Origin: Opitutaceae bacterium
GTDB lineage: Bacteria; Verrucomicrobiota; Verrucomicrobiia; Opitutales; Opitutaceae
Length of the DNA stretch: 45,724 nt
Direction of reading: 5' to 3'
NCBI GenBank assembly: GCA_030693515.1
Contig: JAUYAK010000036.1
Span: 1-45,724 of the forward strand
Position numbers and translations under genes: made by a program. The notes under the pieces were generated by a model that worked only from the letters and a program-made list of their open reading frames with translations, was not told the DNA's origin and did no database searches. Positions 25,139-31,707 of this stretch are shown here, in pieces. The number at the start of each line of letters is the position of its first letter. Positions within the stretch are counted from its first letter, which is position 1.

Positions 25139-25309
25139 AGCGTGGCGCGGACGCTAGTCGCTTTCGGACATTGCACCAGACGAAAGGCCGCACCCGCAGA
25201 ATGTCCTAACCCCATCGGCGCTTGTTACGATTAGTTGAGATAACACATGAGCGCCCCCTCCACTGCCTCGTTGCGCCCGCTGCCCTTTGCCCCAAAGACT
25301 GCCCCTACC

Positions 25310-26800
25310 ATGAGCGAAAAACCGGAACTGCTCACCACCAACCGCAAAGCGCTCACCATCAATCTGGACGCGCAGAAATATGGCACATTCGCGGAGATTG
25401 GCGCGGGCCAGGAGGTCGCTCGCGTTTTCTTCCAGGCCGGCGCGGCTTCGCAGACCGTGGCCAAGACCATCTCGGCCTACGACATGACGTTCAGCGACGC
25501 CATCTACGGCAAGGCCCCCCGTTATGTCTCGCGCGAACGCCTCGGCATGATGGTCGAACATGAGTATAATCTCCTCATCGAGCGTCTAGGACCCGCGCGC
25601 GGCGAAAGCTCCACCTTTTTCGTGTTCGCCGACACCGTCGCCACCAAGGGGTTCAAAGGCATTGGCGACGCGCACGGCTGGATGGGCGTCCGCTTTCAGA
25701 CGGAGCCCGGCGGTCCGCCAAGCGAGGTGCTCGTGCATGTCCGCATGTGGGACAAGGAAGCCCTCCTCGAGCAAGAGGCCCTCGGCATCGCCGGCACCAA
25801 CCTGATCTACGCCGCCTTCTATCATCGCGAGGATCCGCGCCGCTTCATCGAATCCCTGGCCGACAACCTCGGCACCGACCGCATCGAGATCGACATGCTC
25901 AAGTTCTCGGGCCCGGCCTTCGAGGGCTACGATAACCGCATCATGGCCCTGCGCCTCGTGCAGTCCGGCCTCACCAACGCCGTGATGTTCGCCCCCTCCG
26001 GCGAAGTGCTGCAGCCTTCCGAGACGCTCTATAAAAAGGCCATCCTCGTCGAGCGCGGCAGCTTCCGCCCCGTCACCCACGTTAACATCGACATGCTCAA
26101 CTGCGCCACCGCGCAGTTCGTCCAGGAGCCCGCCGTGAAGGGCAAAGACGTCGTCGTGCTCATGGAGATCACGATGAACAACCTCCTCTCCTCGGGCACC
26201 CTCGACCCGCGCGATTTCTTGGAGCGTGTCGATCAGCTCGGCGAACTCGGCCTGACTGCGATCATTTCGAACTACTCCGAATACTACCGTCTCACCTCCT
26301 ACTTCCGCCGCTACACCAAGGAGATGATCGGCGTCGCGATGGGCATCAACAACCTCCTCGAGATCTTCAACGAGAAGTATTACGAAAACCTCGAAGGCGG
26401 CATCCTCGAATCGTTCGGTCGCCTCTTCCGCCATGCGGTGCGGCTCTACGTCTATCCGATGCGGCAGGACGCCTACGACCGCTACATCGCCCAGGCCGCG
26501 CCCCACGCCAACGTCGCCCACGCCTTCGCGTCGAACGTCCTCATCAACGCGAAGAACGCCCAGGTCGCCGTCCATCTCCGCAACCTTTACGCCCATCTCC
26601 TTGAGAACCACTCCATCACCTGCATCGTCGGCTTCGACGAGCAGGTGCTCGGCGTCTTCTCGCGCGACGTGCTCAGCCGCATCCGCGACGGCGATCCGTC
26701 CTGGGAACAGATGGTCCCCGCCAGCGTGGCCGCCGCGATCAAGCGGCGCCGGCTCTTCGGCTACAACGGGGAAACCGCCAAGCTCCCGGCCGCGAGCTGA
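25310..26800 (+). CDS. Conserved protein of unknown function (about 500 residues)
   Basis: A 496-residue soluble protein with no signal peptide or membrane segment. From memory it belongs to a family conserved across several phyla, with unmistakable stretches such as YGTFAEIGAGQEVARVFF, TISAYDMTFSDAIYG, EHEYNLLIERL, DNLGTDRIEIDML, PVTHVNIDMLNCA and EKYYENLEGGILESFGRLF. Database names for this family (adenylyltransferase, TonB receptor) appear to be carry-over errors: there is no HxGH nucleotidyltransferase motif and no barrel. I assign no function. Start 25310 (MSEKPELL) was preferred; an in-frame ATG at 25247 would add 21 residues. Confidence 0.85.
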   Translation: MSEKPELLTTNRKALTINLDAQKYGTFAEIGAGQEVARVFFQAGAASQTVAKTISAYDMTFSDAIYGKAPRYVSRERLGMMVEHEYNLLIERLGPARGESSTFFVFADTVATKGFKGIGDAHGWMGVRFQTEPGGPPSEVLVHVRMWDKEALLEQEALGIAGTNLIYAAFYHREDPRRFIESLADNLGTDRIEIDMLKFSGPAFEGYDNRIMALRLVQSGLTNAVMFAPSGEVLQPSETLYKKAILVERGSFRPVTHVNIDMLNCATAQFVQEPAVKGKDVVVLMEITMNNLLSSGTLDPRDFLERVDQLGELGLTAIISNYSEYYRLTSYFRRYTKEMIGVAMGINNLLEIFNEKYYENLEGGILESFGRLFRHAVRLYVYPMRQDAYDRYIAQAAPHANVAHAFASNVLINAKNAQVAVHLRNLYAHLLENHSITCIVGFDEQVLGVFSRDVLSRIRDGDPSWEQMVPASVAAAIKRRRLFGYNGETAKLPAAS

Positions 26801-26895: not shown

Positions 26896-27570
26896 ATGCT
26901 CACCGCGCTCGCCCCCGACCTCTGGGAACTCAACGCGCCGCTGTCGGTGCTGGGCATGGCGCTCGGCCATCGGATGACCGTCGCACGCCTGCCCGACGCT
27001 TCGCTCTGGCTGCATTCGCCCGTGGAATTTACCGCGCCGCTGGCCGCTGCGCTCGCCGACCTTGGACCCGTGGCCCACATCGTCGCGCCCAACGCCATGC
27101 ATGACACCTACCTCGAAGCCTGGTTCGGCGCCTTTCCGAGCGCCCGGTTCCACGGCGCGCGGGGTTTCGCGAAATTCCGCCCGGACCTCAACTTCACCGA
27201 CACCCTCGGCGACACACCGGCCGCCGCGTGGGCCGCCACCTTCGACCAGCACCAGTTGCGGGGGATGCCGCGCCTCAACGAGGTCGTTTTTCTCCACCGC
27301 GCCTCCCGCACGCTCGTGCTCACGGACCTCGCCTTCAACCTCGGCCCAGAGATGCCGCTCCTGAGCCGCGCGCTGCTCAGGCTCAATGGCTGCTACTGCA
27401 AGTTCGGGCCTTCGCGCCTCTTGAAATCCACCATCAAGGATCGCGCCGCGCTCCGCCGGTCGCTCGACCAGGTGCTCGCGTGGGACTTCGACCGCGTAGT
27501 TGTGAGTCACGGCAAGAACGTGGAGACCGACGGCAAGGAGCGGCTGCGCGCGGCGTTCGCTTTTCTCTGA
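26896..27570 (+). CDS. DUF4336 domain-containing protein
   Basis: A 224-residue protein of the DUF4336 type, which resembles a degraded metallo-beta-lactamase fold. Visible features are APDLWELNAPLSVLGMALGH, PVAHIVAPNAMHDTYLEAWF and a C-terminal WDFDRVVVSHGKNVE. HIVAPNAMHD replaces the usual HxHxDH, so full metal catalysis is doubtful. Function is not established. It follows the conserved gene by 95 bases and precedes the DapF-like gene by 56 bases. Confidence 0.8.
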   Translation: MLTALAPDLWELNAPLSVLGMALGHRMTVARLPDASLWLHSPVEFTAPLAAALADLGPVAHIVAPNAMHDTYLEAWFGAFPSARFHGARGFAKFRPDLNFTDTLGDTPAAAWAATFDQHQLRGMPRLNEVVFLHRASRTLVLTDLAFNLGPEMPLLSRALLRLNGCYCKFGPSRLLKSTIKDRAALRRSLDQVLAWDFDRVVVSHGKNVETDGKERLRAAFAFL

Positions 27571-27626: not shown

Positions 27627-28481
27627 ATGCGCTTCCACAAATACCACGCCCTCGGCAACGACTACATCGTCCTCGATCCGCGCGATTTCCCCGCGTGGGC
27701 TCCCGCGCCCACCGTCGGCCAGATCCGCGTCGTGTGCCACCGGAACTTCGGCGTCGGCTCCGACGGCATCCTCTGGGGGCCGCTGCCCTCCAAGCAGAGC
27801 GAGTTCGGCCTCCGCATCTTCAACCCCGACGGCTCCGAGGCCGAGAAATCCGGCAACGGCCTGCGCATCTTCTCCCGCTATCTCTGGGACCAGCAGCTCG
27901 TGAAGCAGCCCAACTTCACCATCGAGACCCTCGGCGGCCACGTGCAGGTCGCGATCAAGGACGGGGGCCAGCTCCTCACCATCGCGATGGGCAACGTCAG
28001 TTTCTCATCCGAAAAAATCCCCGTCACCGGCGCGCCCCGCGAGGTGTTGAACGAGAAAATCAAGATCCTCGATCGCGAGTTCACGTTCTGCGCCGCCACC
28101 ATCGGCAACCCCCACTGCGTGCTGCCGATGAACGACATCTCGCCCGAACTCGCGCACAAATACGGCCCGCACCTCGAGACCCACCCGAATTTCCCGCGCA
28201 AGACCAACGTGCAGTTCCTCCGCGTGCTCGACCGGAAGAATATCCAGATCGAAATCTGGGAGCGCGGCGCCGGCTACACGCTCGCCTCGGGCAGCAGCTC
28301 CAGCGCCGCCGCCGCCGTCGCCCACCGGCTCGGCCTCGTCGATCGCGATCTCACCGTCCACATGCCCGGCGGCCAGATCGGCATCGAGATCGGCGACGGC
28401 TTCTCGATCATGATGACCGGCACGGTAAACAAAGTCGCCGAAGGCACCATGCACCCGGAGCTGTTTGCCGTAAAAGTCTGA
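27627..28481 (+). CDS. dapF: DapF family protein with both catalytic cysteines replaced by serine
   Basis: A 284-residue homologue of diaminopimelate epimerase, which interconverts LL- and meso-diaminopimelate for lysine and peptidoglycan. Family landmarks are GNDYIVLD (10-17), FNPDGSEAEKSGNGLR (65-80), ATIGNPHCV (157-165), NVQFL and WERGAGYTLASGSSSS (211-226). The two catalytic cysteines of known DapF, in CGNG and ACGxG, are S75 and S221 here; the DNA (TCC and TCG) is unambiguous. Either this is a variant lineage with another mechanism or it does not epimerise. Start 27627 gives the normal MRFHKYHALGND. A small membrane-protein gene follows after 11 bases. Confidence 0.88.
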   Translation: MRFHKYHALGNDYIVLDPRDFPAWAPAPTVGQIRVVCHRNFGVGSDGILWGPLPSKQSEFGLRIFNPDGSEAEKSGNGLRIFSRYLWDQQLVKQPNFTIETLGGHVQVAIKDGGQLLTIAMGNVSFSSEKIPVTGAPREVLNEKIKILDREFTFCAATIGNPHCVLPMNDISPELAHKYGPHLETHPNFPRKTNVQFLRVLDRKNIQIEIWERGAGYTLASGSSSSAAAAVAHRLGLVDRDLTVHMPGGQIGIEIGDGFSIMMTGTVNKVAEGTMHPELFAVKV

Positions 28482-28633: not shown

Positions 28634-28664
28634 TGCATCCCCTTTGGGGTCGCGCACGTATGAT
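28634..28664 (+). promoter_or_regulatory. Candidate ECF-type promoter of the sigma/anti-sigma operon
   Basis: TGCATCC (28634-28640) and CGTATGAT (28657-28664) are separated by 16 bases. This is the form of many ECF promoters, which have a CATCC or AACC type -35 and a CGTA or CGAA type -10. It lies about 95 bases before the sigma start, where an autoregulated ECF promoter is expected. Confidence 0.4.
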
Positions 28665-28757
28665 ACGCAAATGTCCACCTGCCTGTCCTTCCTCTCTCCC
28701 GGCCTCCTCGCGGTGGCAGGGCGCGACAGGGCACAGGCCGACGGCTACCGCGACCGC

Positions 28758-29366
28758 ATGACGCTGCCGGCACCCACTTCGCCGACGCCCCCGGACTCGG
28801 ACGAGCGCCAGCAAATCGACGCCGCGCTCGTGCAACGCATGGCCGCGGGCGAACGCGATGCCCTCGGTGATCTTTATGACCGCTTTTCCGGCCCGTTGCT
28901 CGGCGCCGCCCAGCAAATCCTGCGCGATTCAGCCGAAGCGCAGGATGTCGTCCACGATGCCTTTGTCACGATGTGGGAAAAAGCCGTCACCTTCGACCGC
29001 ACCCGCGGCAGCGCCTTTGCGTGGGCCGTCACCCTCGTCCGCAACCGCGCCATCGACCGCGTCCGCATGCGCCGCCGCCGCGCGGAGCTGCTGGAGGGCG
29101 CCGCTCCCGCCGACCTCGGCTACCAGGAGTCCGGCGGCGAAGCCACCGGACGCGAGACGGTGACGATCGGCGAGGAGGCTCGCGCCGTCCGCGCTGCGGT
29201 CGCCACGCTTCCACTGGAGCAACAGCGCGCCGTGGAACTCGCTTTCTTCGGTGGTTTCACCCAGGAAGAAATCGCCCGCAAGCTCGCCGCCCCCCTCGGC
29301 ACCGTGAAGGCCCGCATTCGCCGCGGCCTCCTCAAACTCCGCGACTCGCTCGCGGTCCGGCCATGA
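28758..29366 (+). CDS. ECF sigma factor
   Basis: A 202-residue RNA polymerase sigma factor of the extracytoplasmic function group. Region 2 is DLYDRFSGPLLGAAQQILRD and DVVHDAFVTMWEKA; region 4 is LPLEQQRAVELAFFGGFTQE and GTVKARIRRGLLKLR. It resembles SigK-type ECF factors that pair with RskA-type anti-sigma proteins, which fits the next gene. Start 28758 (MTLPAPTSP) was chosen over longer in-frame starts at 28644 and 28671, which would add unrelated sequence. The stop overlaps the anti-sigma start (ATGA, 29363-29366). Confidence 0.93.
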   Translation: MTLPAPTSPTPPDSDERQQIDAALVQRMAAGERDALGDLYDRFSGPLLGAAQQILRDSAEAQDVVHDAFVTMWEKAVTFDRTRGSAFAWAVTLVRNRAIDRVRMRRRRAELLEGAAPADLGYQESGGEATGRETVTIGEEARAVRAAVATLPLEQQRAVELAFFGGFTQEEIARKLAAPLGTVKARIRRGLLKLRDSLAVRP

Positions 29367-30361
29367 TCGACGAACGCCACGAAGAACTCGCCGCGCTCCA
29401 CGCCCTCGACCTGCTCGAAGGCGCGGAACTCGCCGCCTTCGAGCGGGCCCTCGCCGCCGATCCCAAGTTGCAGGCGCTCGTCCGCGAGCTGCGCGAAGCC
29501 TCCGCCGCGCTGGCTCACACCGCGGCCGCCGCCCCCGCGCCCGCCGCGCTCAAGGCCCGCATCCTCGCCACCATCGACCGCGCCGAGCGCCCCGCGCCCG
29601 ACAATGTCATCCGCCCCGGCTTCGGCGTCTGGCACATCCTGCCGTGGGCCGCCGCCGCGTGCTTCGGTCTCAGCGCTGTCTGGCTCGGCCAGCGTGCCTC
29701 GACAGCCGAGAGCCAGATCGTCGCCCTGCGCAATGAGCAGACCCTCACCAAGGTGTCGCTCCAGACCGCGCTCCAGCAGCTCGAGATCGATCGGCTCGTG
29801 TCGGCCAAGGCGATCGAGGAGACGACCCAAAAACTCGCCGCCGCCACCTCCGACCTCGGCTCCACCCGTTCGCTGCTCGCCGCGCGCGACGAGCAGGTCA
29901 CGTCGCTCTCCGCCCGCATCACCGCGCTCGCTTCCAGCGCCACGGTGCTGGAGCGCCAGCTCGGCGACACCCGTCAGCAGGTCGCCCAGCTCACTGCCGA
30001 CCTCAAGGCGCAGGGCGATCTCGCCAACTACCAAATCACGGCGCTCGCCTCGATGATTGAGGGCTCGCCCAAGTCGGTCGCCGCCGCCGTCTGGAATCCC
30101 TCGAAACAGGAAGGCGTGCTCAAGGTGGAGAATCTCCCCGCGCTCGCCGCCAACGAAGACTACCAGCTCTGGATCGTGGACCCGCGCTATCCGAATCCCG
30201 TCGACGGCGGCGTGTTCACCGTCGATCCCAAGACAGGGGCTCGCAGCATCAGTTTCAAATCGAAGCAGCCCGTGGAGGTCATCAACGCTTTCGCGGTCAC
30301 TCGCGAGCGCAAGGGCGGCGTCCCCGTGGCCGAGGGCCCGTTCGTGCTGCTGGGCAAGTAG
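29363..30361 (+). CDS. RskA-type anti-sigma factor with a long extracytoplasmic coiled coil
   Basis: A 332-residue membrane anti-sigma factor. Residues 1-70 form the cytoplasmic sigma-binding domain, without zinc cysteines. A membrane segment covers about 92-109 (ILPWAAAACFGLSAVWLG). Residues 112-222 are a strong coiled coil of about 110 residues. Residues 238-331 are the RskA C-terminal domain (AAVWNPSKQEGVLKVENLPA, NEDYQLWIVD, PFVLLGK). RskA-type proteins hold the sigma factor until regulated proteolysis. The coiled coil between membrane and sensor domain is longer than usual and could mediate sensing. The gene overlaps the sigma gene by four bases, and its TAG stop lies inside a GTAG palindrome. 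Confidence 0.9.
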   Translation: MIDERHEELAALHALDLLEGAELAAFERALAADPKLQALVRELREASAALAHTAAAAPAPAALKARILATIDRAERPAPDNVIRPGFGVWHILPWAAAACFGLSAVWLGQRASTAESQIVALRNEQTLTKVSLQTALQQLEIDRLVSAKAIEETTQKLAAATSDLGSTRSLLAARDEQVTSLSARITALASSATVLERQLGDTRQQVAQLTADLKAQGDLANYQITALASMIEGSPKSVAAAVWNPSKQEGVLKVENLPALAANEDYQLWIVDPRYPNPVDGGVFTVDPKTGARSISFKSKQPVEVINAFAVTRERKGGVPVAEGPFVLLGK

Positions 30362-30519: not shown

Positions 30520-31707
30520 ATGATCATCAAACCCAAGGTCCGTGGCTTCGTCTGCATCACCGCCCATCCGGAAGGCTGCGCGGCCCATGTGCAGGAATGG
30601 ATCGACCACGTGAAATCACGCGGCGCCATCTCAGGCGGCCCCAAGCGCGTCCTCGTGATCGGCTCGTCCACGGGCTACGGCCTCGCCTCGCGCATCGCGG
30701 CGGCCTTCGGCTCCAGCGCCGCGACTGTCGGCGTGTTTTTCGAGCGCCCTTCCGAGGAAGGCCGCCCCGCCACCCCCGGCTGGTATAACACCCTCGGCTT
30801 CACCCAGGCCGCGCGCGCCGCGGGGCTCTACGCCAAAAACTTCAACGGCGACGCCTTCTCCGACGACATCAAGCGCCAGGTCCTCGACGCCATCCGCACC
30901 GACCTCGGACAGGTGGACCTCGTCGTCTACTCGCTCGCCTCGCCGCGCCGCACGCACCCGAAGACCGGCGTCGTGCACAAATCCGTCCTCAAGCCCGTCG
31001 GCCAGTCCTACACCAACAAGACCGTGGACACCGACAAGGGCATCGTCAGCACCATCACCATCGAGCCCGCCAACGAGCAGGAGATCGCCGACACCACCAC
31101 CGTCATGGGCGGCGAGGATTGGGAGCTGTGGATGCAGGCCCTCTCCGATGCCAAGCTCCTCGCCCCCGGCGCGCAATCCGTCGCCTACTCCTACATCGGG
31201 CCCGAGGTCACGTGGGCCATCTACAAAAACGGCACCATCGGCCTCGCCAAAAACGATCTCGAGCGCGCCGCCAAGCACATCGACTCGCTCCTCAAGCTCA
31301 ACGGCGGCGGCCGCGCCTTCATCTCGGTCAACAAGGCGCTCGTCACGCAGGCCAGCTCCGCCATCCCCGTCGTCCCGCTCTACATCTCGATCCTCTACAA
31401 GATCATGAAGGCGGCCGGCACGCACGAGGGCTGCATCGAGCAAATCCAGCGCCTCTTCGCCACGCAGATGTATAACGGCCACACGCCCCAGTTCGACGAG
31501 GCCGGCCGCGTGCGCATCGACGATTGGGAGATGCGCCCTGAGATTCAGGATGCGGTGAAAAGCATCTGGCCCGGCGTCACCACCGAAAGCCTCGCCACCG
31601 AAACCGACATCGCCGGCTACCGCAGTGAATTCCTGAAGCTCTTCGGTTTCGGCCTCCCCGGCATCAATTACGAAGCCGAGACCGAGCCGCACCGGCCGAT
31701 GCTGTGA
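30520..31707 (+). CDS. fabV: Enoyl-ACP / trans-2-enoyl-CoA reductase FabV
   Basis: A 395-residue enoyl reductase that performs the last step of each fatty acid elongation cycle with NADH. It matches FabV along its length: MIIKPKVRGFVCITAHPEGC, VLVIGSSTGYGLASRIAAAF (cofactor site), VDLVVYSLASPRR, and the active-site region SYIGPEVTWAIYKNGTIGLA with a Tyr and Lys in the spacing used by FabV. FabV enzymes are known for low sensitivity to triclosan in other bacteria; whether that holds here is not visible. The gene stands alone, preceded by a palindrome-containing promoter candidate. Confidence 0.96.
   Translation: MIIKPKVRGFVCITAHPEGCAAHVQEWIDHVKSRGAISGGPKRVLVIGSSTGYGLASRIAAAFGSSAATVGVFFERPSEEGRPATPGWYNTLGFTQAARAAGLYAKNFNGDAFSDDIKRQVLDAIRTDLGQVDLVVYSLASPRRTHPKTGVVHKSVLKPVGQSYTNKTVDTDKGIVSTITIEPANEQEIADTTTVMGGEDWELWMQALSDAKLLAPGAQSVAYSYIGPEVTWAIYKNGTIGLAKNDLERAAKHIDSLLKLNGGGRAFISVNKALVTQASSAIPVVPLYISILYKIMKAAGTHEGCIEQIQRLFATQMYNGHTPQFDEAGRVRIDDWEMRPEIQDAVKSIWPGVTTESLATETDIAGYRSEFLKLFGFGLPGINYEAETEPHRPML

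What the first reader, a model, noticed from the sequence alone, without database searches (positions are those of the whole stretch)
27627..28481. DapF homologue with both catalytic cysteines changed to serine
The active-site pair of diaminopimelate epimerase (CGNG and ACGxG) is SGNG (S75) and ASGSS (S221), while substrate-binding residues around both sites are kept. Coordinated change of both residues suggests selection rather than decay. It may mean a different substrate, a different mechanism, or a binding protein in a bacterium that still needs meso-diaminopimelate.
Basis: partly seen in the sequence, partly recalled or inferred. Interest (0 to 1): 0.7.

Follow-up and report, generated by a model that had tools for sequence, protein, structure and literature searches.

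The report
DAP epimerase with serines replacing cysteines
A whole group of bacteria appears to make an essential cell-wall amino acid with an enzyme whose two normally indispensable cysteines are both serines, which standard enzyme chemistry says should hardly work.

Summary
Window 27627-28481 (+) encodes a 284-aa DapF homologue (TIGR00652, 232 bits) with Ser75 and Ser221 in the places of the two catalytic cysteines. It is neither error nor decay: 156 of 197 distinct sequences read are Ser/Ser, 41 Cys/Cys, none mixed, and dN/dS to close relatives is low. The DAP-binding residues whose alanine mutants kill C. glutamicum DapF are kept; Lys74, Tyr217 and Ser224 are class-specific. It is the only DapF found in its genome, which has DapL and LysA but no Ddh. 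Of 196 order genomes at least 95% complete, 162 have Ser/Ser only, 22 Cys/Cys only, 1 both, 11 no DapF, and 8 of those 11 have Ddh. Best explanation: it is the lineage's working LL-DAP to meso-DAP epimerase, with Ser in both acid/base positions. Activity is inferred, not shown; single Cys-to-Ser changes in a relative leave under 0.1% (PMC8225329), so compensation is needed. Other-substrate and binding-protein readings fit less well. My open-access literature searches showed no report of a natural Ser/Ser DapF. New variant of a known kind.

The parts
27627..28481 (+). dapF homologue of the Ser/Ser type, 284 aa
27849..27851 (+). Ser75 (TCC), place of the first catalytic Cys (Cys83 in C. glutamicum; Cys73 in H. 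influenzae)
   Evidence: Ser in 156 of the 156 Ser/Ser-class rows, Cys in 41 of 41 others
28287..28289 (+). Ser221 (TCG), place of the second catalytic Cys (Cys221 in C. glutamicum; Cys217 in H. influenzae)
27846..27848 (+). Lys74, class-specific neighbour of Ser75 (Met in most Cys/Cys relatives)
   Evidence: Lys in 153 of 156 Ser/Ser rows; Met in 32 of 41 Cys/Cys rows
28275..28277 (+). Tyr217, class-specific (Glu in most Cys/Cys relatives, GETLACG)
   Evidence: Tyr in 154 of 156; Glu in 34 of 41 Cys/Cys rows
26896..27570 (+). upstream DUF4336 gene, same strand, 56 bases before dapF; not a constant neighbour
   Evidence: found in 20 of 134 loci examined, flanks of varying length

Best explanation
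This is the working diaminopimelate epimerase of the Opitutales lineage: it binds LL-DAP (made by DapL) as other DapFs do and inverts one alpha-carbon to give meso-DAP for MurE and LysA. Ser75 and Ser221 stand where the thiolate/thiol pair stands and act as, or in, the proton acceptor/donor pair. Because a bare Ser is a poor base, class-specific residues (Lys74 beside Ser75; Tyr217 and Ser224 around Ser221) probably activate the serines or take over part of the proton transfer. Shown: sequence, conservation, predicted fold, single copy, pathway genes, mutual replacement with Cys/Cys DapF and Ddh. Inferred: epimerase activity, product meso-DAP, and all chemistry. I put epimerase function at about 0.75; given that, serines as the direct bases about 0.5, Lys/Tyr-assisted or substituted bases about 0.4.
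For: Only PF01678 protein found in its genome (the two matches are halves of this one frame); no Ddh there; DapL 562.7 bits, LysA 452.7 bits, MurE homologue with DNPR. CgDapF residues whose Ala mutants lose activity (N15, N74, N85, N159, N194, E212, R213, T223; PMC5296763 passages) correspond by alignment to N11, N66, N77, N161, N194, E212, R213, S223 here and are kept in the class (the two N161 exceptions are the plasmid rows). All 185 DapF-bearing genomes among 196 order genomes at least 95% complete were read: 162 Ser/Ser only, 22 Cys/Cys only, 1 both; about 19 with both would be expected if independent (163 x 23 / 196; kinship not corrected). Of the 11 without DapF, 8 have Ddh over the cut-off, against 1 of 10 DapF-bearing genomes that I added to the same search. 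MurEs of Ser/Ser, Cys/Cys and Ddh genomes of the order lie on one side of a branch (SH-aLRT 100, 23 rows). Ser/Ser is one side of a branch (SH-aLRT 99, 103 rows; 100/99, 55 rows). dN/dS 0.06-0.30 in 10 of 12 pairs.
Against: No activity data. Either Cys-to-Ser change in PddB leaves under 0.1% activity, and the same passage says such faint activity was reported for Mt-DapF (PMC8225329); HisR C67S and C209S are greatly reduced (PMC11602996 passages). Ser/Ser stands beside a Ddh in G028, G029, G035 and G532, and beside a Cys/Cys paralogue in G443 and five phylum genomes. G331, G526 and G449 show neither DapF nor Ddh. G042 (0.9 Mb) keeps a divergent Ser/Ser DapF but no LysA match and no MurE over the cut-off; G343 has Ser/Ser and no MurE over the cut-off. 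Opitutaceae were long reported without DAP, and GC/MS found little (PMC5303756). The window ORFs scanned around dapF hold no lysine gene; neighbours in other genomes were not annotated.
Confidence: 0.68

Rival explanations
1. The protein is a DAP epimerase in which Ser75 and Ser221 are not the bases; Lys74 and/or Tyr217 (or a metal or water they hold) move the proton and the serines only position it, as other DapF-fold enzymes use other residues (PhzF, recalled: Glu45).
For: Lys74 in 153 of 156 and Tyr217 in 154 of 156 Ser/Ser rows, rare in Cys/Cys rows; Anabaena DapF has no basic residue within 4 A of its catalytic sulfurs (PMC12039745 section 6 part 1), so a lysine here would be a real change.
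Confidence: 0.3
2. The lineage uses LL-DAP as such in its wall (as Streptomyces does, recalled), the Ser/Ser protein is a slow or vestigial epimerase, and only trace meso-DAP is needed for lysine.
For: Three Lacunisphaera strains gave no DL-DAP by TLC; DAP by GC/MS (isomer not stated in the passages read) was 3-7 nmol/mg, Opitutus terrae included, against 63 in E. coli from another study, with ornithine besides (PMC5303756); Coraliomargarita reported without DAP (PMC3035286).
Against: In genus g26, G051 has Ddh and no DapF while G439, G444 and G446 have Ser/Ser DapF and no Ddh over the cut-off; Ddh makes meso-DAP (recalled). MurE is kept across Ser/Ser, Cys/Cys and Ddh genomes. LysA, specific for meso-DAP (recalled), is in the window's genome.
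Confidence: 0.12
3. The protein no longer epimerises; it is a DAP-binding, regulatory or structural protein, or acts on another amino acid, and an unknown enzyme makes meso-DAP.
For: Loss of both thiols; two plasmid-borne Ser/Ser homologues sit beside oxygenase and molybdopterin oxidoreductase genes rather than lysine genes.
Against: Those two lack the recognition Asn161, Lys74 and Tyr217 that the window's group keeps; near-strict single copy and replacement by Ddh or Cys/Cys DapF; no second DapF or Ddh found in the genome.
Confidence: 0.13
4. Decay or sequencing error.
For: None found.
Against: Ser/Ser in 156 of 197 distinct sequences and never mixed, in many families; low dN/dS; no stop inside any listed match.
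Confidence: 0.01

Closest known systems
Diaminopimelate epimerase DapF, Cys/Cys type (H. influenzae, C. glutamicum, Anabaena, P. aeruginosa 8qzy)
   Different: Both catalytic cysteines are serine; Lys74, Tyr217, Ser224 instead of mostly Met, Glu, Gly
Engineered Cys-to-Ser DapF-fold mutants (H. influenzae 2q9h C73S, 2q9j C217S; PddB C101S, C233S; HisR C67S, C209S)
   Same: Serine at one of the same two places
   Different: Those are single laboratory changes, nearly inactive in PddB and greatly reduced in HisR; here both are natural, conserved and come with other class-specific changes
Aspartate/glutamate racemase with a Cys/Thr pair (Ecl-DER, in PMC8142540)
   Same: Natural replacement of a catalytic Cys by a hydroxyl residue
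   Different: Other fold family (recalled), one Cys kept, reaction reported as one-way
Plasmid-borne Ser/Ser DapF homologues of Streptomyces sp. NBC_01216 and Agrobacterium vitis VAT03-9
   Same: Ser at both catalytic places; on the Ser/Ser side of the tree
   Different: Lack Asn161, Lys74, Tyr217; sit beside 2OG-Fe dioxygenase, molybdopterin oxidoreductase and aldo/keto reductase genes

Membership tests
DapF (TIGR00652 / PF01678) by sequence | Score above curated cut-off | tested here: met
   232.1 bits vs 114.65, residues 1-275 of 284; 182.7 vs 34.7
DapF (TIGR00652 / PF01678) by sequence | Two-domain DapF fold | tested here: met
Canonical Cys/Cys DAP epimerase | Pair of catalytic cysteines | tested here: not met
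   Ser75 and Ser221; so not filed as a canonical DapF
Canonical Cys/Cys DAP epimerase | DAP recognition residues (N11, N66, N77, N161, N194, E212, R213, S/T223) | tested here: met
   all kept in the window protein and nearly always in its Verrucomicrobiota class
Canonical Cys/Cys DAP epimerase | LL-DAP to meso-DAP epimerisation, alpha-H exchange | not testable with these tools
   needs an assay
Canonical Cys/Cys DAP epimerase | Only known source of meso-DAP in the cell (no Ddh, no second DapF) | tested here: met
   own genome; the assembly may have gaps (see the MurE remark)
meso-DAP dehydrogenase (Ddh) bypass in the window's genome | PF16654 match | tested here: not met
   0 matches in G000

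The most novel reading that the evidence does not exclude
Most of a bacterial order, and several more Verrucomicrobiota families, run an essential cofactor-independent amino-acid epimerisation with a natural serine/serine pair (helped by a conserved Lys and Tyr) instead of thiolates. That would overturn the view that this chemistry needs cysteine on at least one side, and might bear on the scant, long-missed DAP of 'subdivision 4' Verrucomicrobia.
Probability: 0.5. Interest if true: 0.85.

Novelty: new variant of a known kind. Interest (0 to 1): 0.63.

Why it matters
DapF is an antibacterial target and a textbook case of thiolate bases pulling a proton of pKa about 29. A conserved natural Ser/Ser form that replaces the Cys/Cys form in related genomes would show a second chemical solution in the same fold, should escape thiol-directed inhibitors, and means that gene annotation by family model alone hides a changed active site. 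It is testable with one purified protein and one complementation plate, and it gives a lead on why DAP was so hard to detect in Opitutaceae.

Tried and rejected
Decay or error: rejected by conservation. Second DapF or Ddh in the genome: none found. Operon evidence: the window ORFs scanned near dapF hold no lysine gene; of ten window ORFs traced in 134 loci with flanks of varying length, the most constant neighbour is an unknown 517-aa gene, in 91, with no Pfam or NCBIfam match. Viral contigs: no match to the peptide patterns. Phages: 28 records match, none read residue by residue. Plasmids: 117 records match, 6 read: 4 Cys/Cys, 2 Ser/Ser. Spread of Ser/Ser outside Verrucomicrobiota was not surveyed further. 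Solved structures: 17 distinct sequences match; alignments of 5 were read, all with Cys at both places. Active-site distances could not be measured: no model coordinates are exposed. I first took the PF16654 hits in G028, G029 and G035 for weak look-alikes; TIGR01921 scores them 312-323 bits, so they count as Ddh. Literature: searches listed no paper whose title, abstract start or passages that I saw report a natural Ser/Ser DapF; the library is open-access only. What I saw: passages of PMC11602996, PMC5303756, PMC3035286, PMC5296763, PMC8142540, PMC8225329; passages plus part 1 of section 6 of PMC12039745; all other papers only as search listings. Two paper searches on peptidoglycan and proline racemases and one with no result were run too.

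Full report

Is Ser/Ser real and kept? In one search, 131 of 132 loci (three of them the window itself) were Ser/Ser; the other, 30% identical, was Cys/Cys. On 197 distinct sequences, 156 are Ser/Ser (154 Verrucomicrobiota, 2 plasmid-borne) and 41 Cys/Cys (37 and 4), none mixed. With the motif columns left out, a quick tree of 103 representatives puts Ser/Ser on one side of a branch (SH-aLRT 99), and a careful tree of 55 rows does so with 100/99; the Verrucomicrobiota Ser/Ser rows without the two plasmid rows are one side with only 77/64. The root is not known, so the direction of change is not shown, and long branches (L050, L292, L295 and others) make details unsure. Simple NG86 dN/dS from the window gene to ten relatives is 0.06-0.30; of two more distant pairs one gave no usable dS and one gave 0.53. 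Ser75 uses both serine codon classes (114 TCN, 42 AGY), so serine as such has probably been kept across codon switches.

What else is kept or changed? In C. glutamicum DapF, alanine at N15, N74, N85, N159, N194, E212, R213 or T223 almost abolishes activity, as does alanine at either Cys (PMC5296763 passages). By alignment these are N11, N66, N77, N161, N194, E212, R213 and S223 here. Among 156 Ser/Ser rows N66, N77, N194, E212 and R213 are invariant; N11 is 155 with one gap; S223 is Ser 150, Thr 6; N161 is 154, the two exceptions being the plasmid rows. Class-specific changes include K74 (153 of 156; Met in 32 of 41 Cys/Cys rows), Y217 (154; Glu in 34 of 41) and S224 (154; Gly in 41 of 41). 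So the DAP-reading machinery is intact, and the acid/base site and its surroundings changed together.

Pathway context. The window's genome (6.6 Mb, 130 contigs, rated 100% complete) has no other PF01678 protein and no PF16654 (Ddh) match, but has DapL (562.7 bits), LysA (452.7 bits) and a MurE homologue with DNPR (that DNPR marks DAP-adding MurE is recalled). That MurE has an unusual P-loop, so the assembly may lack the true murE, and 'complete' must be taken with care. A cleaner case is G030, one contig: one DapF match, Ser/Ser (L020), no Ddh, with LysA (451.6), MurE (521) and DapL (567.4). Some small genomes with Ser/Ser DapF lack a LysA match (G042, G045, G048, G049), of which G045 and G048 have a MurE over the cut-off; there the enzyme would serve the wall alone. 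G042 has no MurE over the cut-off either, which does not fit.

Replacement across the order. Of 196 order genomes at least 95% complete, 185 have a DapF, and all 185 were read: 162 Ser/Ser only, 22 Cys/Cys only, 1 both (G443). If the two kinds were independent, about 19 genomes should hold both (163 x 23 / 196; kinship not corrected). With genomes of lower completeness the count is 181 Ser/Ser, 22 Cys/Cys, 1 both of 204. Of the 11 without DapF, 8 have a Ddh over the TIGR01921 cut-off (G492, G051, G197, G223, G352, G454, G471, G473) and 3 have neither (G331, G526, G449); of 10 DapF-bearing genomes that I added to the same search 1 has Ddh (G532) (Fisher p 0.0075, kinship not corrected). Within genus g26, G051 has Ddh and no DapF, while G439, G444 and G446 have Ser/Ser DapF and no Ddh over the cut-off. 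Against a strict rule, G028, G029, G035 and G532 carry Ser/Ser DapF and a Ddh; among the 57 relatives Ddh was found in G028, G029, G035 and G051 only. MurEs of Ser/Ser, Cys/Cys and Ddh members of the order fall on one side of a branch (SH-aLRT 100, 23 rows), and 26 of 27 MurE loci read show DNPR. Since Ddh makes meso-DAP (recalled), the easiest reading is that Ser/Ser DapF supplies the same product.

Chemistry. Known DapF-fold racemases use a thiol/thiolate pair; a Cys-to-Ser change in PddB leaves under 0.1% (PMC8225329) and HisR mutants are greatly reduced (PMC11602996). A natural Cys/Thr pair exists in an aspartate/glutamate racemase and goes with a one-way reaction (PMC8142540). A natural double Ser is therefore surprising. 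I propose that the serines, at the same places as the cysteines, work with help from Lys74 and Tyr217/Ser224; which residue holds the proton is inference. In Anabaena DapF no basic residue lies within 4 A of the catalytic sulfurs (PMC12039745), and the residue matching Lys74 lies in the loop that curves around the substrate without H-bonding it.

A link to an old puzzle. 'Subdivision 4' Verrucomicrobia were long said to lack DAP; three Lacunisphaera strains gave no DL-DAP by TLC, and these and Opitutus terrae gave 3-7 nmol/mg DAP by GC/MS against 63 for E. coli in another study, plus ornithine; a DapF was listed for strain IG16b, and its active site is not commented on in the passages I read (PMC5303756). 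Coraliomargarita was reported without DAP (PMC3035286). Low DAP could reflect a slow Ser/Ser enzyme or merely little peptidoglycan; I did not test this, and I did not read the DapF of those named strains. A Lacunisphaera MAG in my set (L120) is Ser/Ser.

Beyond the lineage. Ser/Ser also occurs in phylum genomes outside the class (families f41, f48, f51, f57, f76, f82, f88), while the remaining phylum genomes that I chose to read were Cys/Cys. Two plasmid-borne homologues, in Streptomyces sp. NBC_01216 and Agrobacterium vitis, are also Ser/Ser but lack N161, K74 and Y217 and lie beside a 2OG-Fe dioxygenase, an iron-containing redox enzyme, a molybdopterin oxidoreductase and an aldo/keto reductase gene. 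They may act on another substrate, and they show that Ser/Ser is not confined to Verrucomicrobiota.

Verdict. It is not filed as a canonical Cys/Cys DapF because that defining feature fails; that it works like one is inferred from genomics.

Noticed in passing
L297 (NZ_CP108679.1) and L298 (NZ_AP023281.1): A shared gene set (iron-containing redox enzyme, 2OG-Fe dioxygenase, Ser/Ser DapF homologue, molybdopterin oxidoreductase, aldo/keto reductase, EamA transporter nearby) in Streptomyces and Agrobacterium vitis plasmids; looks like a small biosynthetic cluster with a Ser/Ser DapF-fold enzyme, perhaps on a non-DAP substrate.
   Followed up: partly
L241-L245 (genomes G338, G341, G269, G362, G164): A divergent Cys/Cys DapF paralogue (motifs like EPDGSEA.LCGNGTAC and FEFGV.ETLACGTG, binding Arg213 replaced by Phe) beside a Ser/Ser DapF in four genomes and beside another Cys/Cys one in G338; possibly another amino-acid racemase.
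   Followed up: partly
L286 (G000:C71:18617-20014): The only MurE over the cut-off in the window's genome has an unusual P-loop (GAAGKTV where G022 and G029 have GTNGKTT) and scores 420 bits where G022, G029, G030 and G031 score 512-525; a paralogue, or the true murE is missing from the assembly.
   Followed up: partly
window 25247-26800 (+): 517-aa protein without Pfam or NCBIfam match, on the same strand upstream of dapF in 91 of 134 loci examined.
   Followed up: partly
window 28644-30361 (+): ECF sigma factor and an RskA_C anti-sigma factor in overlapping frames, followed by a FabV-type enoyl reductase (30520-31707).
   Followed up: no
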